Shown: piece after piece, positions 1 to 38,461 of the stretch
Layout of the letters: each line of letters opens with the position of its first letter
Numbering within the stretch: the stretch's first letter is position 1
Source: a virus
DNA: 38,461 bases
IMG/VR virus record: IMGVR_UViG_3300037083_000012
Coordinates: 1-38,461 of that record
Direction: 5' to 3' (one strand)
The notes under the pieces: model-generated
Told to the model about the DNA's origin: nothing
Database searches by the model: none
The model's input: only the letters and a program-made list of their open reading frames with translations
Translations under genes and position numbers: made by a program

Positions 1-127
1 GCAGGTTGTAAGTTGCCTACATCTGACATCACCGAGGCCTTTGATTTTGATAAAATCCAGATCAAACAAGTCATAGATACGAAAGAAGCCTTGATCGAGT
101 AATATTGTTTCTATGGGTTTAGGCAAT
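1..127. repeat. terminal direct repeat, left copy (assembly overlap)
   Basis: Bases 1-127 are identical to 38335-38461. An exact repeat whose length equals a common assembler k-mer is the usual sign of a circular or circularly permuted genome, so the two copies should be collapsed to one. It carries the last 34 codons of the plus gene 37807-38436 and, on the other strand, part of the alpha-CTD-like gene. A genuine short terminal repeat is possible but less likely. Confidence 0.9.
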
Positions 128-291
128 TGAAGTATTTCGATAGGCGCATCACAAGCCATATAGTTCAAAGTTTTTTTATACTCATCGAACTTCTTAAGCA
201 CCTCCTCTTTTATTTTCTGCATTTGCATATCTTTTTCAAAGTTTATATTTACATTGGTCTCATTTTCTTTTAAATTTTCGTTATCAGACAC
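1..291 (-). CDS. RNAP alpha-CTD / helix-hairpin-helix-like small protein (5' part; continues at 38308)
   Basis: Reading the minus strand from GTG at 291 gives an open frame that crosses the junction and stops with TAG at 38308-38310, 105 aa in all. No ATG lies near the start, so simple callers miss it; AGGA lies 8 nt upstream of the GTG. The first 45 residues are charged and helical. From about residue 50 the pattern is PIE-L-LP, then RIYDLF, then IKIKGLGDVR and a final helix. This matches the RpoA C-terminal domain and related helix-hairpin-helix folds that bind DNA or proteins. It is transcribed divergently from the scaffold gene. A transcription or DNA-binding role is inferred from fold resemblance only. 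Confidence 0.6.
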   Translation of the reverse strand, partial: MSDNENLKENETNVNINFEKDMQMQKIKEEVLKKFDEYKKTLNYMACDAPIEILQLPKPIETILLDQGFFRIYDLFDLDFIKIKGLGDVRCRQLTTC

Positions 292-292
292 A

Positions 293-303
293 AGGAGTTT
301 CCT
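293..303. promoter_or_regulatory. shared palindromic ribosome-binding site of divergent genes
   Basis: The 11-bp sequence AGGAGTTTCCT supplies AGGAG to the plus gene starting at 306 and AGGA to the minus gene starting with GTG at 291. The two start codons lie only 14 bp apart, so promoters for each gene must lie inside the other gene. Confidence 0.5.
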
Positions 304-305
304 GT

Positions 306-1097
306 ATGACGGTTTCAAACCCTGAAAATACGGCCACTGAGCCTATTATTCAAGATAAAGTTGACACAAATATATCACAAAAAAATAGTGACACAAATAT
401 ATCACAAAATCCCCCCATAGAGAATAAGGAAGGGGAGCAGGAAGATCCGAATTGGAGGGCATTCCGTGAGGCACGAAAACAAGACCGAGCACAAAGAGAA
501 GCAGCTGAAAAACGAGCAGTTGAAAAAGAAAATGAGGTTGCGGCTCTTAAAGCTGCGATGGAGACTGCTTTCTCAAAATCCTCGCCTACTCCGGAAGCTT
601 ATCAACAATATTATGGATCGAACCAATCTTACGATCAACAAGAAGAAACCGAAGATCAAAGGATAGAGAAAAAAGTAAATAAACTCCTTGCTGATAGAGA
701 AAATAAATATAGACAGGAGCAAGAAGAATATGAAAGGCGCGAATACCCGAATAAACTTAATAAAAATTACCCTGATTTTTCACAGGTGTGTTCACAAGAG
801 AATTTGGACTATTTAGACTATCACTTTGCTGAGATATCACGACCCTTACAACGTCTACCCGACGGATATGATAAATGGTCAGATATTTATCATGCTGTCA
901 AAAAATTAATCCCTAACCAAAATCGCCAGAAACAAGATTCGGCAAAAGCCGATGCAAATACTAACAAGCCTAAATCCATGTCGACTACACAACTAAGCCA
1001 GCCCGGTCACGCAAGCACAAGCTCATATCAAGAAATAGAGCAGCGTAGGGCAGAAAATTGGGCTAGAATGCAGAAAACTATCAATAGGATTGGATAA
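306..1097 (+). CDS. putative capsid scaffolding protein
   Basis: This 263-aa, highly charged, Gln/Glu/Lys-rich protein has a disordered N-terminus, a long predicted coiled coil (about residues 50-140) and a basic tail. That is the usual character of phage scaffolds, which chaperone coat assembly and then leave the procapsid. Its place just upstream of the major capsid gene supports the call; no sequence motif proves it. The start has an AAGGAG site 9 nt upstream. A 27-bp tandem duplication near the N-terminus repeats DTNISQ. Confidence 0.65.
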   Translation: MTVSNPENTATEPIIQDKVDTNISQKNSDTNISQNPPIENKEGEQEDPNWRAFREARKQDRAQREAAEKRAVEKENEVAALKAAMETAFSKSSPTPEAYQQYYGSNQSYDQQEETEDQRIEKKVNKLLADRENKYRQEQEEYERREYPNKLNKNYPDFSQVCSQENLDYLDYHFAEISRPLQRLPDGYDKWSDIYHAVKKLIPNQNRQKQDSAKADANTNKPKSMSTTQLSQPGHASTSSYQEIEQRRAENWARMQKTINRIG

Positions 1098-1331: not shown

Positions 1332-2300
1332 ATGGCTTTTGCAACCGGAATAACCGGTATTCAGAACATGGCACCTGAGCTTCCATTGCAGGCGAGCGAG
1401 GATCTTTTGTCAACTCCAATGTTTAATTTGATACACTCGTTCGGTGTAGATCTCCATCATGCAGAGAGTTACGTCGGACAAACCACGCGCATGTCAAGAT
1501 TTGAACGCCTATCAACTGATGGCGGTCAACTCGATGGAAGTGGAATTGATCCGTCTTCTGAGGTCCCTGTAAGAACCGACATCGACGCGAAGATGGAAAT
1601 CTATGCAAAGTCGATCGTCACTAACGAGCAGATCATTATTTGGGAGAATTCCAAAACTCTAACCAAGTTTACCGCGCTTCTAGGCGGATGGCTGCGTGAG
1701 AAAGAAGACTTGCTTATGCGAGATCTTTTCTCTAGCTCAGTGTCTTACATCAATTGTACCGGCGGTTTGAACGGCGATCAGCCATCAAACATCAGTTTGA
1801 ATGACGTAAACAACATTGAAAACATCCTACTTGGCAATGATGCAAGGTCAATGCTAACAAGTTTGGAAGCTACTAACAAGTTTGCTACAGCTGGCGTACG
1901 TGATGCGTTTATTGCTCTTTGCAGCACTAACCTATCATCTGATCTTCAGAAAGTACAAGGCGTACTGCTCAAGTCTGCATACCCAACACAAGAAGGGATC
2001 AGACCCGAAGAGTATTGCTCCATCTCAAGATTCAGGTTCTTTGTTTCATCTAAAGCAGCAAGGACACCAGGCATCTCTCTTAAAGGCAATACAGTCTACA
2101 CCATACCTATGTACGGTCTAGAAGCTGCTGCCAAAATTGAGCAAAACAACTACACAGCCGTCATTGGATATCGTCCTCCTTGGGTGGTTTCTTCTGTAGC
2201 TCAAAACAGCCAGCTATACGCTAAGTTTGCGATTGCCCGCGCGATCACTAACCAAAACTGGATCTCTGGTTTGAACGTCACAACTTTCCAACCATCATAA
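1332..2300 (+). CDS. major capsid protein, N4-gp56-like family
   Basis: The 322-aa product resembles the N4-gp56 family of HK97-fold coat proteins. It has a short N-terminus without a cleavage motif, an internal TRMSRFERLS segment and the long helical stretch around ITNEQI/LREKEDLLMRDL expected of the spine helix. It would form the icosahedral shell. It follows the scaffold gene and precedes decoration-like genes. The start is fixed by GAGG seven T's upstream. Assignment is by overall pattern, as the family has no catalytic motif. Confidence 0.8.
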   Translation: MAFATGITGIQNMAPELPLQASEDLLSTPMFNLIHSFGVDLHHAESYVGQTTRMSRFERLSTDGGQLDGSGIDPSSEVPVRTDIDAKMEIYAKSIVTNEQIIIWENSKTLTKFTALLGGWLREKEDLLMRDLFSSSVSYINCTGGLNGDQPSNISLNDVNNIENILLGNDARSMLTSLEATNKFATAGVRDAFIALCSTNLSSDLQKVQGVLLKSAYPTQEGIRPEEYCSISRFRFFVSSKAARTPGISLKGNTVYTIPMYGLEAAAKIEQNNYTAVIGYRPPWVVSSVAQNSQLYAKFAIARAITNQNWISGLNVTTFQPS

Positions 2301-25677: not shown

Positions 25678-25893
25678 ATGATTTCTGATGATGATTTAGA
25701 AAATATGGAAGACACTGATCTATTATCTATAGTAGATAGGTACAAATGCGTTAGATCTTTTGAATCCGAATTTATCGACTCACTCTATGAACGAGATGGA
25801 TTTACAGAAAATCAGAGAAATGCACTAATAAACATAATTGTAAAGTTTAGGATGATAAAAAAAATACAGATATATGAGATGAAAAATGATTAA
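25678..25893 (+). CDS. small acidic hypothetical protein
   Basis: The 71-aa helical, acidic protein contains LENMEDTDLLSIVDRYKCVR and DGFTENQRNALINIIVKF. Its end overlaps the methyltransferase start by 8 nt, so it may be coupled to it. No domain was recognised. Confidence 0.55.
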   Translation: MISDDDLENMEDTDLLSIVDRYKCVRSFESEFIDSLYERDGFTENQRNALINIIVKFRMIKKIQIYEMKND

Positions 25894-27151
25894 ATGGACT
25901 CTCAAAGAACTAGCCATTAAGGATCTAAAGAATCACCCCAAAAACCCACGCCAAATTAAAAAAGATCAGCTTGCGCGCCTCGCCGAAAATATGAATAAAT
26001 TCGGCCTAATCGACAAGCCAATCGTTAATGCCGATATGACCATCATTGGTGGACATCAGCGTATTCGCATTCTAAAGAAGCAGAAGGTTAAAACTATAGA
26101 ATGTTGGGTAGCACCAGAGCAATTATCAGACGATCAGGTTGATGAACTTTGCATTAGCCTTAATCTGCATGGAGGTGCATGGGACTTTGACATATTAGCA
26201 AACGAATGGGAGCCTTTAAAGCTATTGGAATATGGATTCACAGAAGAGCAGCTATTAGGACTCGCAGAAGGCGAAGGAAGTAAGTTAGATGATGAGTATG
26301 AATCCGAACTACTAGAACCGCCAAAGAATCCTAAAACTAAACCCGGTGACATCTACATCCTAGGCAACCATCGCCTGATATGCGGTGACTCAACCGATAA
26401 AGACACAGTCGATAAAGTACTTAATGGTGAAACACCCATATTAATGTGCACCGATCCTCCTTATGGGGTAGAATATGATGCTAGTTGGAGATCAAAAATA
26501 AAAACTCAAAAAGGAAAAACATCTATCGGTAAAGTAATGAATGATAATTTAATTGATTGGTCAGAATCATGGAAACAATTTCGCGGAACTATCTGTTATA
26601 TATGGCATGCGAGTATATTCGCTAGTGAAGTACAGAAATCATTAGAAAAATATGATTTTGAATTAAAATATCAAATAATTTGGGTAAAGCAACAAGCATT
26701 TAATCGAGGTGATTATCATTTTTATCATGAACCTTGTTTTTATATGGTGAAAAAAGGAAAAAATCATAATTGGAATGGAGATCATAAACAAAGGACTGTT
26801 TGGGAAATAGATTCTTTAAACCCATCAAGAAAATCAGAATCATTAGAAAATAATGAAAAAACAGCCCATTCGACCCAAAAACCATTAGAATGTATGGCTA
26901 AACCTATACGGAACAACACCGCGCCCGGCGAAGGCGTATATGACCCTTTCTTAGGATCAGGCACAACGCTAATAGCAGCCGAACAGCTAGGACGTAAATG
27001 TTTTGGAATCGAGCTAGATCCCGCCTATGTGGATATTATAGTTGACCGTTGGGTAAAGTATCGCGAGAAAAATGGATTAGACGCAAAAGTCACATTAAAT
27101 GACCATGATGTCTATTGGAATAGAATAATAGATTTAGGAAAAAAATCATGA
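25886..27151 (+). CDS. ParB-domain DNA methyltransferase (beta-class, N4/N6)
   Basis: The 421-aa protein joins an N-terminal ParB/Srx-like domain (about 5-130, with IIGGHQRIRIL at 53-63) to a DNA amino-methyltransferase. Motif IV TDPPYG is at 189-194 and the SAM site YDPFLGSGTT at 352-361, followed by FGIELDPAYV. The order IV then I is the beta class. It would methylate adenine or cytosine amino groups, possibly guarding phage DNA from host restriction. The central target-recognition part (about 200-330) is much more AT-rich than its flanks. Confidence 0.85.
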   Translation: MIKWTLKELAIKDLKNHPKNPRQIKKDQLARLAENMNKFGLIDKPIVNADMTIIGGHQRIRILKKQKVKTIECWVAPEQLSDDQVDELCISLNLHGGAWDFDILANEWEPLKLLEYGFTEEQLLGLAEGEGSKLDDEYESELLEPPKNPKTKPGDIYILGNHRLICGDSTDKDTVDKVLNGETPILMCTDPPYGVEYDASWRSKIKTQKGKTSIGKVMNDNLIDWSESWKQFRGTICYIWHASIFASEVQKSLEKYDFELKYQIIWVKQQAFNRGDYHFYHEPCFYMVKKGKNHNWNGDHKQRTVWEIDSLNPSRKSESLENNEKTAHSTQKPLECMAKPIRNNTAPGEGVYDPFLGSGTTLIAAEQLGRKCFGIELDPAYVDIIVDRWVKYREKNGLDAKVTLNDHDVYWNRIIDLGKKS

Positions 27152-29856: not shown

Positions 29857-30066
29857 ATGGAATGGCCACAAGTCATATCAATCATTGGAGCCAATCTTGC
29901 TATGTTTTTATGGTCGGTTAGACAATCAAATACTTTTTACATGCACCTTGATAAAAAGATGGAAGACAACCGCAAAGAAACAAATGGACTAATAAAAGCC
30001 ATTCAAGAAGAAATTAAAGACTTCCATGAAAGACTATTTAAATTGGAACAGGAAAGAAAGAAATGA
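29857..30066 (+). CDS. membrane/coil protein, paralogue of 14035 and 34048
   Basis: The 69-aa protein reads MEWPQVISIIGANLAMFLWS, then VRQS, a helix and EIKDFHERLFKLEQERKK. It is nearly the same at both ends as the 58-aa minus gene 14035, with a longer middle. ATG 29857 is chosen because GGGA lies before it and the family starts MEW. Its TGA overlaps the recombinase ATG. Confidence 0.7.
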   Translation: MEWPQVISIIGANLAMFLWSVRQSNTFYMHLDKKMEDNRKETNGLIKAIQEEIKDFHERLFKLEQERKK

Positions 30067-30632
30067 AAGGTAAACGAGTCGGATATAAAAGAGTAAGCAC
30101 AAATGAACAAAATGCAGACAGCCAACTAATGTCGGTGGAGTTGGACAAAACTTTTATAGAATTTGAAACTGGCTATTCAACTAAGGATCGTCATCAGTTA
30201 GCCGCTTTGAAGGAATATGTTAGAGAGGATGACATCGTTTTCGTTGAATGTATGGATCGACTAGGACGTGACGGTTATGATCTAGATGAAATAGTTGAAT
30301 TCTTATTGGAAAAAGGCGTCCAGATTCATTTCGTTCGAGAAGGTTTCATTTTAGGTAAGAAAAATGATATCATGTCTAAACTATCTTATGACATGATGAA
30401 AGCTTTCATTCATTATTATTCTCATCTTGCTAAAGAACGCCAACGCAGAGGTATCGAAAGAGCAAAAAAAGAAGGAAAATATAAAGGTAGAAAATCTAAA
30501 TATGATGAATTGATGGGTCATAAAATAAGAGACGCACTTCAAACCAGAGACACTAAAACTAAAATTGCTAAAGACCTAGGAATATCACGCTTCAGTTTAT
30601 ATCGCTATATGGAGCAGCTTAATTTAAAATGA
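30063..30632 (+). CDS. small serine recombinase (resolvase/invertase family)
   Basis: The 189-aa protein has the standard size and plan of small serine recombinases. The catalytic Ser12 lies in YKRVST, followed by ECMDRLGRDG (usual S-DRL-RN), the long E helix and a C-terminal helix-turn-helix (KTKIAKDLGISRFSLYRYME). It would cut and rejoin DNA at paired sites, for inversion, resolution of dimers or, less often, integration. No large C-terminal integrase domain is present. It is coupled to genes on both sides by ATGA. Confidence 0.85.
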   Translation: MKGKRVGYKRVSTNEQNADSQLMSVELDKTFIEFETGYSTKDRHQLAALKEYVREDDIVFVECMDRLGRDGYDLDEIVEFLLEKGVQIHFVREGFILGKKNDIMSKLSYDMMKAFIHYYSHLAKERQRRGIERAKKEGKYKGRKSKYDELMGHKIRDALQTRDTKTKIAKDLGISRFSLYRYMEQLNLK

Positions 30633-31778: not shown

Positions 31779-32189
31779 ATGGCTAGGTTACCAAAAGAAA
31801 TTGATTGGAAGGTTGTAGAAAAACTTGTGGAATGCGGATGTAGCGGAGTTGAAATAGCAAGAAAATGCGACATAAAAAAACAAACATTCTATTCTAGATT
31901 CGAAAAAGAATATAATGAAAAGTTTCAGGATTATCGTACCGAACTCGAGAGTGGAGGAACAGCAGATTTAAGGGCAATGATGCACGCTAAAGCCATCAAT
32001 AATCGCGCTCCTGGAAACACCACAATGCTTATCTTCTTGGCTCGATGTCGGCTAGGTATGCGTGAGCCTGATATCGTGCAGCATCTAGCACCTAACCAAG
32101 ATAGACTCGACCAGTCACATCTCATCATGGAACTACAACACAAAATCACTGAACTGGAAGCTAATGCCAACAAGCCCAAAGCAGAATAA
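31779..32189 (+). CDS. terS: terminase small subunit
   Basis: The 136-aa protein has an N-terminal helix-turn-helix (KLVECGCSGVEIARKCDIKK, then QTFYSRFEKEY) that would bind the packaging site, a helical oligomerisation part and a coil. It lies directly before the large subunit, overlapping it by 26 nt, as usual. A clear ribosome site was not seen. Confidence 0.75.
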   Translation: MARLPKEIDWKVVEKLVECGCSGVEIARKCDIKKQTFYSRFEKEYNEKFQDYRTELESGGTADLRAMMHAKAINNRAPGNTTMLIFLARCRLGMREPDIVQHLAPNQDRLDQSHLIMELQHKITELEANANKPKAE

Positions 32190-33438
32190 ATCGTTCGTAG
32201 AAGCCACTCATAGGTTCAATATATGGGTCGGTGCTGTATCATCTGGCAAGACATACTCAAGCATCGAGCGATTTATACATGACCTGAAGAATGGGCCGCC
32301 AGGCGATGCGATGATCATCGGCGTAAACCGCACGTCGATACAACGTAATATTTTAACACATCTATACAAACAATTGGGGTTTCCATGTCCGACGGAGAAA
32401 GCATCGAAGAGCACATTGTATGGACGCGATGTGTGGTTTGTGGGCGCCCCAGATGTAAGCGCTGTTTCTACCATCCAAGGCTCTACCTTAGCCTTAGCTT
32501 ACGTGGACGAGGCTACAAATTTACCCGAGCCTTTTTGGAAAATGTTGGAATCCCGATTGCGTGTCCCCGGTGCGAAACTCCTTGCTACCTGCAATCCTGA
32601 AGGACCGGCACACTGGCTTAAGAAAGACTATATTGATAAACCCGAACTAGATCTTGTACACTGGAACTTTAGCCTAGAGGATAACCCAACACTTGACGCA
32701 GCATACAAACAACAGCTTAAAGCTTCCTACACGGGAATGTGGTACAACCGTTACATACTCGGTGAATGGGCGCTCGCGCACGGTGCAATATATGACTGCT
32801 ATGACGCCACAAATGAGTATACCAATGAATTCCCAGCGCCCAATTATTATATTGTTGGAGTTGATTATGGTACTACAAATGCAACCGCTGCGGTATTATG
32901 CGCGGTTAGCCCTAATGCGTGGCCACAGATACGAGTGGAAGCGGAATATTACTATGATTCAGCTAAAAAGGGACGCTCGAAGACCGACCAAGAACTCGTT
33001 AGGGATATTAAGGACTTTATTGGATATAAAAACGTATCTGCAGTATATGTCGACCCTGCTGCAGCTTCCCTCAAAATCGCCCTTCGACAAGCCGACCTCC
33101 CCGCACTTGATGCAAATAATGATGTTCTTTTGGGCATTAAGATATGCTCAAAGTTCATTGGTGGCAAAAATATCGTCATACAAAAAGGATGTACAACACT
33201 AAGGGAGCACATACAATCTTATGCCTGGGATAGCAAAGCTGCCGATAGAGGCGAGGACAAACCAGTTAAAAAAAACGATCACATTCTGGATGCACTCAGA
33301 TATGCCGTGTGCACAGCTTTCCCGCAAGGCGAGTTTGCGCACCCTGATGAAAATATTTCGTACGATCAACTTCGCCGGCGCGTATTTGAAGAAGATACAT
33401 GGGGTCCATTAGGCAACACAGCAGGGGGATATTTTTGA
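32164..33438 (+). CDS. terL: terminase large subunit
   Basis: The 424-aa packaging motor has Walker A GAVSSGKT at 23-30, Walker B LALAYVDEA at 109-117 (Asp115, Glu116) and the coupling motif ATCNPEGP near 141-148. The RNase-H-like nuclease has acidic residues in GVDYGTTN (Asp234), YVDPAA (Asp297) and NDHILDAL (Asp372, Asp376). It cuts and pumps phage DNA into the head through the portal. Length and motifs fit the PBSX/P22-like group. The start overlaps the small subunit gene. Confidence 0.9.
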   Translation: MPTSPKQNKSFVEATHRFNIWVGAVSSGKTYSSIERFIHDLKNGPPGDAMIIGVNRTSIQRNILTHLYKQLGFPCPTEKASKSTLYGRDVWFVGAPDVSAVSTIQGSTLALAYVDEATNLPEPFWKMLESRLRVPGAKLLATCNPEGPAHWLKKDYIDKPELDLVHWNFSLEDNPTLDAAYKQQLKASYTGMWYNRYILGEWALAHGAIYDCYDATNEYTNEFPAPNYYIVGVDYGTTNATAAVLCAVSPNAWPQIRVEAEYYYDSAKKGRSKTDQELVRDIKDFIGYKNVSAVYVDPAAASLKIALRQADLPALDANNDVLLGIKICSKFIGGKNIVIQKGCTTLREHIQSYAWDSKAADRGEDKPVKKNDHILDALRYAVCTAFPQGEFAHPDENISYDQLRRRVFEEDTWGPLGNTAGGYF

Positions 33439-34350: not shown

Positions 34351-34376
34351 AACATTTACTTTACACCGGTTTGCTG

Positions 34377-36404
34377 ATGGGTTCATACGAGTCTGGAAAT
34401 TATTCTCTAGGATATGTAGACCCAACCGATCTATCAAATAAAGATCTCAAACAGCATATGGATTGGTTTTACAATAATAATTACACGATCAATTCTACAT
34501 TTTGGTTACAGGCGGCAATTGACAAGCGTTTTAAAGTAGGCGACCAGCAGCTCTACAATCAGTTCTACGGCTCTAATTCACAGAACGTGCAAAAGTTTTT
34601 CTTTAACCTGATTCGTCGTCATATCAACATGATTGCAGGCTATCAGCGAAAGAATCGCAAATCTACAATCACCATGCCTATCAATGAAAATGACGATCCA
34701 TTAGCTGATGATTACAATAAAGTAATGCGCTGGTGTGATGATAGAGACGGCTTTCAAGAATATCTTTCCCAGGCATTTGAAGGGGCGTGCGACGTTGGCG
34801 AGTCTTTACTGCACCTGTACCCTGATTATACTTATGATGCTATTTCTGGGGATCTATTTACTGATAATGTAGCATCACCCAATTATCTCATGGATAGTTA
34901 CACACGCAAACAGGATCTTAGCGATTGCAATGGCATATGGCGTAGACGATGGACATCTAAGCAGATGGCTAAATTGCTACTACCTGGCTATGCTAAAGAG
35001 ATAGATCGTATGCGTCCGGGAGGAATGAAGGATGGGCGATTTCCACTACAAGCAGAATTGCAGAATATAGCTACCAGCAATCTATTCACTTACGACGAGT
35101 TCTACTACCGCACTACGCGACCAGGGAAAATGATTCTAGACCCATATACCGGCGAAGCGACGGAATGGCAGGAGGATGAGCAAGATAGTCCTGATATGTT
35201 CAAAAAAGTTATGCAGCAGCAACCATGGCTGAAAATAAAGAACGTTGAGGTTCCGACGGTTAAGCTTGTGATTAGCCTTTCAGGAAATATCGTATATCAC
35301 GGAGATAACCTACTTCGCATTGATGATTATCCTTTTGTGCCTACACAATGCTATGTAGAGCCAGATATACAATCATACGCATCGCGTAAGCAGGGCATCA
35401 TTAGAAACCTACGTGATTCTCAGTTTCTCTACAATATGCGTAAAGTAATCGAGCTACAGCTATTGCAATCTAGCTTAAACGCTGGTTGGATATACCCTGT
35501 GGACGTAGTGACAGACGCTAAATGCTTCCGGCAGACTAGTGGTGGAGACGGATTTCTTATCCCTCTTAAAGCTGGGCATCTACCAAATGAAATTCAAAGA
35601 ATTGAGCCTGTAGCACTACCACAGTCACTAATGGAACTATCAAACTCTTTAGCAGAGGACATAACTAAAATCTCGGGGGTGAATGAAGAATTGCTTGGAT
35701 CGGCCACTGATGACAAGAGTGGAATACTATCAATGCTACGACAAGGAGCAGGGCTCACGACGTTACAAACTATATTTGATAAATTGGACTACTCACAGAG
35801 ACTATACGGCAAGATTAGGCTACAAGCTATTCGCAAGAACTTTAGTAAAGGTAAAATTCGTAACATACTGGGACACGATGCGGATGAACGATTTTGGACA
35901 TCGCATAGCCAAAAATATGCTGTGGCTGTCGAGGAAGGGAATTACAGTACGACACAAAGGCAAATGGAGTTACAGCAACTCCTACATTTCAAAGAATTGG
36001 GAATTGATATCCCGAATAAATCTATTATACGAGCCGCCTTTATCACAAATAAGCGACAAGTTATGCAAGATATGGAAGAGCAATCACAACAGCAAATGCA
36101 ACAGCAGCAAGCTCAATCTCAGCAGCAAGAGAAGCTCGATAATGCTAAGGTTATGGCAGCGTTTAGTAAATCTCGCCTCGACATGGCTAAGATCGATGAG
36201 ACATATGCGAAGGTAAATGATTTGAATGCTAGCGCCGCACACAGGACGACGCAGAGCGAAATGGACATGGTAAAGAGCATGTTGGAACTCGAAACGATGG
36301 ATCTCGATATGATTCACAGATCATGGGAAATAGCTATGGCGATCAAAGGGGCGAATGCTCCAGAACAAGTTACACAACAATCAAACACGGCTATGGCCGG
36401 ATAG
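34377..36404 (+). CDS. portal protein (P22-like)
   Basis: The 675-aa protein is of P22-portal size and layout. Its N-terminal segment contains FFFNLIRRHINMIAGYQRKN and RKSTITMP. A long mixed core and a C-terminal Gln-rich coil (about 560-640) follow. It forms the dodecameric ring for DNA entry and exit. ATG 34377 is taken as start (a TTG two codons earlier is open). Downstream of the large terminase, it begins the head genes. Confidence 0.8.
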   Translation: MGSYESGNYSLGYVDPTDLSNKDLKQHMDWFYNNNYTINSTFWLQAAIDKRFKVGDQQLYNQFYGSNSQNVQKFFFNLIRRHINMIAGYQRKNRKSTITMPINENDDPLADDYNKVMRWCDDRDGFQEYLSQAFEGACDVGESLLHLYPDYTYDAISGDLFTDNVASPNYLMDSYTRKQDLSDCNGIWRRRWTSKQMAKLLLPGYAKEIDRMRPGGMKDGRFPLQAELQNIATSNLFTYDEFYYRTTRPGKMILDPYTGEATEWQEDEQDSPDMFKKVMQQQPWLKIKNVEVPTVKLVISLSGNIVYHGDNLLRIDDYPFVPTQCYVEPDIQSYASRKQGIIRNLRDSQFLYNMRKVIELQLLQSSLNAGWIYPVDVVTDAKCFRQTSGGDGFLIPLKAGHLPNEIQRIEPVALPQSLMELSNSLAEDITKISGVNEELLGSATDDKSGILSMLRQGAGLTTLQTIFDKLDYSQRLYGKIRLQAIRKNFSKGKIRNILGHDADERFWTSHSQKYAVAVEEGNYSTTQRQMELQQLLHFKELGIDIPNKSIIRAAFITNKRQVMQDMEEQSQQQMQQQQAQSQQQEKLDNAKVMAAFSKSRLDMAKIDETYAKVNDLNASAAHRTTQSEMDMVKSMLELETMDLDMIHRSWEIAMAIKGANAPEQVTQQSNTAMAG

Positions 36405-37806: not shown

Positions 37807-38436
37807 GTGAAAGACAAGAAGATGAGAATCTCAGGCGGTGAACTATCTCGCAAGGCTCTATCCGACACAACGAAGTACAAAGCCTTGGAAGTCGGTCATT
37901 GGATGGCCGAAGATATAGAACCTCATCTCTATCAAGCGATTGCTAATTATGAGAACATGATCGATGAGAATGAGTTCTGCGTTGTGATGGTATTGGCTAC
38001 TGACCCTCTCATCAAGAATCTAATCCGTCGTAAATTCTATTGTTGGCCTTACTTGCCTAGTCCTAGACCAAACCAATCAGTTTTTTTATATAACAAATCA
38101 GCAGGCAGGATAATCAAAAGATTATGGGTTCTTCCTTCTGCTTTGGCAATGTCAGATCTTACAGATCCAAGATTAACAGTTAATAAAATGGTTCATAAAA
38201 GATACGAGACAATGCAAGCATGGTCTATGGCTTTCTTTGAGGGTAAATTCTGGGAGTATATTAGATACGAAAGCGAAATCAATATGCCATCAGAACATGA
38301 ATATTTCCTACAACATCGCGAAGAACTTATCCAAGCAGGTTGTAAGTTGCCTACATCTGACATCACCGAGGCCTTTGATTTTGATAAAATCCAGATCAAA
38401 CAAGTCATAGATACGAAAGAAGCCTTGATCGAGTAA
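37807..38436 (+). CDS. hypothetical head-cluster protein
   Basis: The 209-aa mixed alpha/beta protein contains ISGGELSRKALSDTTKYKAL, MDENEF-VV-V-ATDPLIKNL-type segments and WPYLPSPRPNQSVFLYNKSA. No domain was recognised. Starts at GTG 37807 or ATG 37822 are both weak. Its last 43 codons lie antisense to the alpha-CTD-like gene. Its position between portal and scaffold suggests a minor virion or assembly protein. Confidence 0.65.
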   Translation: MKDKKMRISGGELSRKALSDTTKYKALEVGHWMAEDIEPHLYQAIANYENMIDENEFCVVMVLATDPLIKNLIRRKFYCWPYLPSPRPNQSVFLYNKSAGRIIKRLWVLPSALAMSDLTDPRLTVNKMVHKRYETMQAWSMAFFEGKFWEYIRYESEINMPSEHEYFLQHREELIQAGCKLPTSDITEAFDFDKIQIKQVIDTKEALIE

Positions 38437-38461
38437 TATTGTTTCTATGGGTTTAGGCAAT
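38308..38461 (-). CDS. 3' part of the alpha-CTD-like minus gene
   Basis: This is the right-end portion of the 105-aa minus frame that begins at 291. It holds the IKGLGDVR hairpin motif and ends LDKFFAML then TAG at 38308-38310. It overlaps the 3' end of the plus gene (to 38436) by 129 nt in convergent orientation, so both strands would be coding here. Confidence 0.55.
   Translation of the reverse strand, partial: LPKPIETILLDQGFFRIYDLFDLDFIKIKGLGDVRCRQLTTCLDKFFAML
38335..38461. repeat. terminal direct repeat, right copy (assembly overlap)
   Basis: This is the exact copy of bases 1-127. With the copies merged, the plus gene starting at 37807 ends at 38436 (equivalent to 102), and the minus gene starting at 291 runs on to 38308. 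Confidence 0.9.

What the first reader, a model, noticed from the sequence alone, without database searches (positions are those of the whole stretch)
1..291. Alpha-CTD-like gene hidden across the genome junction, antisense to a late gene
After joining the ends, a 105-aa minus frame from GTG 291 to TAG 38308 has a strong alpha-CTD/helix-hairpin-helix pattern (RIYDLF, IKIKGLGDVR). It overlaps the plus gene 37807-38436 by 129 nt. A stand-alone phage copy of the RNAP alpha C-terminal fold could act in transcription control. Cutting the circle here hides it from linear gene callers.
Basis: partly seen in the sequence, partly recalled or inferred. Interest (0 to 1): 0.62.

Follow-up and report, generated by a model that had tools for sequence, protein, structure and literature searches.

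The report
Antisense alpha-CTD-like core phage gene
A small viral gene written backwards across the end of a head-region gene is real, is present in all 80 relatives tested, and encodes a free-standing version of the domain with which bacterial RNA polymerase touches DNA and regulators, although it lacks the usual DNA-contacting residues.

Summary
The record has a 127-bp exact end repeat (circle 38,334 bp). Across the join a minus-strand ORF of 105 aa runs from GTG 291 to TAG 38308, overlapping the plus gene 37807-38436 tail-to-tail by 129 nt, codon-in-register. It is a real gene: in all 80 relatives fetched only by the plus gene, the antisense gene is present and overlaps in the same register (mode 129 nt). 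Outside the overlap it has minus-frame codon periodicity; inside, both genes show synonymous-site constraint. Recoding the plus gene synonymously never recreates the family profile (0 of 2,050) and leaves the frame open in 13%. The fold assignment is also right: profile-profile match to RpoA alpha-CTD (probability 89%, 0 of 300 column shuffles), and AlphaFold plus Foldseek put RNAP alpha-CTDs at the top (rmsd about 1.1 A). But it is not a canonical alpha-CTD: no PF03118 hit, and the DNA-contact positions R265, N268, K298 and S299 are not kept. Most likely it is an RNAP- or DNA-associated regulator with an added N-terminal helix, expressed against the late operon. Expression and function are inferred. 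Stand-alone alpha-CTD proteins were already annotated in other phages; two relatives are in UniProt as uncharacterized.

The parts
1..291 (-). 5' 97 codons of the antisense alpha-CTD-like gene (GTG start at 291-289): N-terminal long helix (residues 3-46) and most of the alpha-CTD-like domain (residues 47-100)
   Evidence: joined frame; 80/80 relatives; AlphaFold; hhalign
38308..38334 (-). 3' end of the same gene (last 8 codons and stop TAG at 38310-38308), across the circle junction
   Evidence: contiguous on L001 2375-2692
38335..38461 (.). redundant terminal copy of window 1-127 (assembly overlap of a circular map)
   Evidence: exact 127-bp terminal direct repeat
37807..38436 (+). convergent partner gene, 209 aa, unknown function; its last 42 codons (conserved ...HREELIQAGCK...FDFDKI... 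tail) and stop lie antisense to the alpha-CTD-like gene
   Evidence: 175 relatives; no Pfam/PHROG/NCBIfam/PDB match; tail poorly ordered in AlphaFold
38308..38436 (.). 129-nt dual-coding overlap, codon-in-register antisense (equals 38308-38334 plus 1-102)
   Evidence: codon-position pattern; synonymous constraint in both frames; synonymous resampling
292..303 (.). near-palindrome AAGGAGTTTCCT (AAGGAGTCTCCTT in many relatives) giving Shine-Dalgarno-like sites to both divergent genes, whose starts are 14 nt apart
351..404 (.). 27-bp tandem repeat inside the first codons of the divergent gene; the minus-strand motif ATTTGTGTCAACTTT recurs about 80 and 107 nt upstream of the minus start in relatives; candidate control region of the antisense gene
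   Evidence: excess synonymous conservation over about 50 codons
306..1097 (+). divergent neighbour, scaffold-like by position and composition (between the portal side and the capsid gene), 263 aa
   Evidence: assignment inferred
1332..2300 (+). major capsid protein, N4-gp56 family
   Evidence: TIGR04387 E=2.1e-17, above cut-off
34371..36404 (+). P22-like portal protein
   Evidence: PF16510 E=1e-66
32164..33438 (+). terminase large subunit
   Evidence: PHROG 2 E=9.6e-52; Terminase_6N / Terminase_3

Best explanation
SHOWN BY COMPUTATION: a real, core antisense gene of an uncultured family of viruses of about 37-39 kb with a P22-like portal and an N4-gp56-like capsid encodes a small protein made of an N-terminal helix (residues 3-46) followed by a domain with the RNA polymerase alpha-CTD fold. 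Its last 42 codons and stop are dual-coding with the tail of a convergent head-region gene. INFERRED: it is a regulator that works through RNA polymerase, its activators or DNA, with the alpha-CTD fold as docking module and the helix as a pairing or adaptor element. Because it is divergent from one late gene and convergent into another, it cannot be transcribed together with them, so it is probably made before or apart from late expression, from a promoter inside the first codons of the divergent gene, and late transcription would tend to silence it. Since the residues used by RpoA for the minor groove are not kept, protein contacts or a different DNA-binding mode are more likely than UP-element binding.
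For: Gene reality: 80/80 relatives chosen by the partner gene; codon-position differences outside the overlap .39/.27/.57, inside .40/.13/.39; synonymous excess identity in the minus gene -0.01 to 0.02 over most of the non-overlap (0.24 in the first block, which spans the start region) versus 0.15-0.39 inside, in the partner 0.01-0.06 versus 0.14-0.27; Shine-Dalgarno-like sites; 0/2,050 synonymous recodings reach the real family score, 13% keep the frame open. Fold: hhalign prob 89%, score 35 versus shuffles 10.5 +/- 2.2, maximum 17.5; overlap part alone prob 52%; AlphaFold pLDDT 81; nearly all of the 50 listed PDB fold matches are RNAP alpha subunits, TM 0.81 to 9dvt_A. Control region: synonymous constraint and 27-nt-spaced motif upstream of the minus start. 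Synteny in the head module.
Against: No expression data; no consensus sigma-70 promoter found upstream in most relatives. Canonical DNA-contact positions not kept. Foldseek E-values are modest (best 0.019), partly because the domain is short. The comparison set of RpoA sequences was small (6). The control-region motif was chosen by looking at the same sequences and lies within a coding repeat, so protein-level repetition may contribute. Conservation shows that the gene matters, not that it regulates transcription.
Confidence: 0.5

Rival explanations
1. It is an alpha-CTD-derived anti-host factor: a decoy that occupies host activators, sigma region 4 or RNA polymerase and redirects or inhibits host transcription early in infection.
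For: Stand-alone alpha-CTD fold; loss of the DNA contacts with retention of the fold fits protein decoying; phage proteins that act on the host alpha subunit are known (PMC7552054, abstract listed).
Against: The activator-contact positions 258-261 and the 285-288 loop are also not kept, the loop being shortened by three residues; conservation across a diverse family argues for a core function.
Confidence: 0.2
2. It is a head-assembly or packaging factor that uses an alpha-CTD/HhH fold to bind DNA or a partner protein, and its position between the partner gene and the scaffold-like gene reflects this.
For: Invariant position inside the terminase-portal-scaffold-capsid module; weak match of a bacterial alpha-CTD to a PmgS-like head morphogenesis family (E=0.0074).
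Against: Opposite strand to every head gene near it, so it cannot be co-transcribed with them; the PHROG match is to host alpha-CTD, not to this protein.
Confidence: 0.2
3. The antisense frame is a by-product of the plus gene's codons and of the in-register antisense geometry; no protein is made.
For: In-register antisense frames stay open fairly often (13% after synonymous recoding).
Against: 80/80 conservation, about 63 of 105 codons lie outside the partner gene with minus-frame periodicity, and 0/2,050 recodings reproduce the family profile.
Confidence: 0.01

Closest known systems
C-terminal domain of the bacterial RNA polymerase alpha subunit (RpoA alpha-CTD, PF03118; for example 9dvt_A, 1doq, 1z3e, 3k4g)
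   Same: Whole domain aligns in register over 54 columns; same fold, rmsd 1.1-1.3 A for the best matches; helix-hairpin-helix with a mostly conserved Gly (52/70)
   Different: Below Pfam detection; 3-residue deletion in the loop before the hairpin; R265, N268, K298, S299 not kept; family-specific D48, R71 (70/70 each), P50, Y73, D79; no alpha-NTD; added N-terminal helix
Stand-alone alpha-CTD-like proteins of other phages (BFVD A0A6J5MNY7, A0A6J5L490, Mycobacterium phage Mithril A0A5Q2WLP1; Microbacterium phage Morrill gp24, 'DNA binding protein'; Bacillus phage Goe8 'RNA polymerase subunit alpha')
   Same: Small phage proteins carrying this fold
   Different: Low sequence identity in the fold matches (about 15-25%); Morrill and Goe8 genes were found by similarity to a bacterial alpha-CTD and lie in same-strand gene runs
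Uncharacterized proteins A0A6J5LGC0 and A0A6J5LGT9 of uncultured Caudovirales phages
   Same: Members of the same family by identity (56% and 61%, whole length)
   Different: Deposited without function; their gene context could not be read here
Antisense overlapping gene pairs in phages and bacteria (for example Pseudomonas phage Fc02 olg1/gene 10, PMC9936078; subject of PMC7457138)
   Same: Two proteins from opposite strands of one stretch
   Different: Here one partner has a recognisable fold and the arrangement is kept across at least 80 loci

Membership tests
RpoA alpha-CTD (PF03118) | matches the family profile above its cut-off | tested here: not met
   no PF03118 hit for the window protein or any of 40 members; none in the window by profile search
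RpoA alpha-CTD (PF03118) | alpha-CTD fold with helix-hairpin-helix | tested here: met
   AlphaFold model and Foldseek; hhalign prob 89%, 0/300 shuffles
RpoA alpha-CTD (PF03118) | DNA-contact residues R265, N268, K298, S299 (roles of R265, N268 and K298: PMC5101437, PMC11434276; S299 from general knowledge) | tested here: not met
   R265 position T/V/A/K/S; N268 12/70; K298 position V/T/R/S; S299 position R 51/70
RpoA alpha-CTD (PF03118) | linked to an alpha N-terminal assembly domain | tested here: not met
   complete ORF is 105 aa; residues 3-46 form one helix
Phage stand-alone alpha-CTD-fold proteins | small phage protein whose only recognised domain has the alpha-CTD fold | tested here: met
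Phage stand-alone alpha-CTD-fold proteins | binds RNA polymerase or DNA | not testable with these tools
   needs a binding assay
Antisense overlapping (dual-coding) gene pair | both frames under purifying selection in the overlap | tested here: met
Antisense overlapping (dual-coding) gene pair | both proteins expressed | not testable with these tools
   no transcript or peptide data

The most novel reading that the evidence does not exclude
A core viral transcription adaptor built from an alpha-CTD that has exchanged DNA binding for protein docking, in which the dual-coded overlap and the divergent start with shared ribosome-binding palindrome form a built-in early/late switch: its own transcription opposes the head operon, and late transcription shuts it off.
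Probability: 0.15. Interest if true: 0.72.

Novelty: new variant of a known kind. Interest (0 to 1): 0.5.

Why it matters
If it works on transcription, it is a reduced, free-standing alpha-CTD that viruses keep under double coding constraint, a clean system for asking what this domain does without its DNA contacts. It is also a clear, testable case of long-term antisense dual coding in tailed phages (mode 129 nt, in register, 80 of 80 loci), where one product has a recognisable ancient fold, which suggests the direction of overprinting: the partner's tail was probably laid over the older alpha-CTD-like gene. In annotation terms, it shows a core gene that profile libraries miss.

Tried and rejected
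Single-sequence Pfam, PHROG and PDB sequence searches gave only chance-like hits (UBL_UBAC1, vimentin, a lipoprotein). INPHARED phages and GTDB genomes hold no detectable relative of the protein, so the host is unknown. The partner gene matches nothing by sequence or fold. Consensus sigma-70 promoters before the minus gene: none convincing. A spurious ORF was rejected. Canonical UP-element binding considered and disfavoured. Literature searches found no paper on this family or on phage stand-alone alpha-CTD proteins in the held library. Superinfection exclusion by antisense genes (PMC9936078) is a precedent for the layout only.

Full report
Observation. The first 127 bases of the window recur exactly at its end, so the record is a circular map cut open, of 38,334 bp. 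Joining the ends gives one minus-strand ORF of 105 codons from GTG 291-289 to TAG 38310-38308. It overlaps the plus ORF 37807-38436 by 129 nt tail to tail, and its start lies 14 nt from the start of the divergent plus ORF 306-1097. On contig L001 the same ORF is uninterrupted.

Is it a gene? A scan of IMG/VR with the protein found 11 relatives and, with their alignment, 50, none with an internal stop; wherever the contig covers the end of the gene it overlaps the partner antisense and codon-in-register by 111-186 nt. To avoid selecting for the answer, I then fetched relatives of the plus gene alone: 175 were found, 80 kept, and all 80 carry the antisense gene in register, 51 with exactly 129 nt of overlap. 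In the 41-sequence codon alignment the part outside the overlap differs at codon positions 1/2/3 by .39/.27/.57, the pattern of a minus-strand coding region where no plus gene exists; inside the overlap it is .40/.13/.39, as expected when position 2 is shared and positions 1 and 3 are each constrained by one strand. Synonymous identity exceeds expectation in the overlap for both genes (0.14-0.27 for the partner, 0.15-0.39 for the antisense gene); outside it is near zero in both, except for the first block of the antisense gene (0.24), which spans the start region. When the partner's overlap codons are resampled synonymously, the antisense frame stays open in 13% and never reaches the real family score (0 of 2,050). 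That score comes from a profile trained on these sequences; against the independent profile of bacterial alpha-CTDs the real antisense stretches average 6.5 bits and the recoded ones -0.04 (sd 2.0), with 60 of 2,050 recoded copies reaching their own real score. The gene is real by comparative evidence; expression itself is not shown.

What is it? Single-sequence searches see nothing useful. The family profile places three RpoA chains among its seven best PDB sequences in the right register, at weak E-values. Profile-profile comparison with six RpoA alpha-CTDs gives probability 89% and score 35 over 54 columns; 300 column shuffles average 10.5 (sd 2.2, maximum 17.5), the reversed profile gives 10, the partner family 11.6. 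The overlap part alone scores 23, the other part alone 12. AlphaFold gives pLDDT 81 with one long helix (3-46) and a compact helical domain. Nearly all of the 50 listed PDB fold matches are RNAP alpha subunits, rmsd 1.1-1.3 A for the best short ones, TM up to 0.81, though E-values are modest. In the viral library two UniProt proteins of uncultured Caudovirales (56-61% identity) belong to the same family, followed by phage proteins already named as RNAP alpha C-terminal.

What it is not. No member reaches PF03118. Mapped by the profile alignment onto E. coli, the positions of R265, N268, K298 and S299 are not kept in 70 non-redundant sequences, the 285-288 loop is shortened by three residues, and the activator-contact positions 258-261 differ; instead D48 and R71 are invariant and P50, L64, Y73, D79 nearly or fully so (roles of R265, N268 and K298 from PMC5101437 and PMC11434276). 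It therefore has the alpha-CTD fold but should not be filed as an RpoA alpha-CTD.

Context. The order terminase large subunit, P22-like portal, partner gene, antisense gene, scaffold-like gene, N4-gp56 capsid is kept in distant relatives. The partner (209 aa) has no known match; its dual-coded tail is poorly ordered in the model, which may explain why the overlap is tolerated. Because the alpha-CTD fold spans the overlap boundary and has relatives outside these viruses, the partner's tail is probably the overprinted, younger part (inference).

Control. The divergent starts share a near-palindrome that gives each gene a Shine-Dalgarno-like site. The first 50 or so codons of the scaffold-like gene show excess synonymous conservation that largely vanishes further on, and a minus-strand motif ATTTGTGTCAACTTT sits near -80 and -107 from the antisense start with 27-nt spacing in many relatives. 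The motif was picked by eye from the same sequences and overlaps a coding repeat, so it is a lead. No consensus sigma-70 promoter was found there in most relatives.

Mechanism. Best supported: an RNAP-, activator- or DNA-associated regulator, made from a transcript opposed to the late operon and hence probably before or apart from late expression (0.5). Rivals: anti-host decoy (0.2), head-assembly or packaging factor (0.2), spurious ORF (0.01). No cultured relative of the family was found, so none could be tested here.

Verdict. Observation confirmed; fold interpretation supported, function open. New variant of a known kind: stand-alone alpha-CTD-fold proteins of phages exist, but this family's core status, antisense dual coding and altered surface are distinct.

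Noticed in passing
window 351-404; L001, about 134 to 66 nt upstream of the minus start: 27-bp in-frame tandem repeat, two copies in the window and three in the 99%-identical L001, inside a stretch with excess synonymous conservation
   Followed up: partly
window 292-303: Shared near-palindromic Shine-Dalgarno site between two divergent start codons 14 nt apart, kept in many relatives
   Followed up: partly
window 1332-2300: Capsid protein is 91-96% identical between genomes whose neighbouring genes are only about 50-65% identical
   Followed up: no
window 25886-27151: ParB-N / DNA methyltransferase fusion
   Followed up: no
window 30063-30632 and 31779-32189: Resolvase/invertase-like protein, and a short HTH-like ORF before the large terminase that may be the small terminase
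   Followed up: no
L052 5677-6863: Capsid gene matched by two separate ORFs with a gap between them, as if interrupted by an insertion
   Followed up: no
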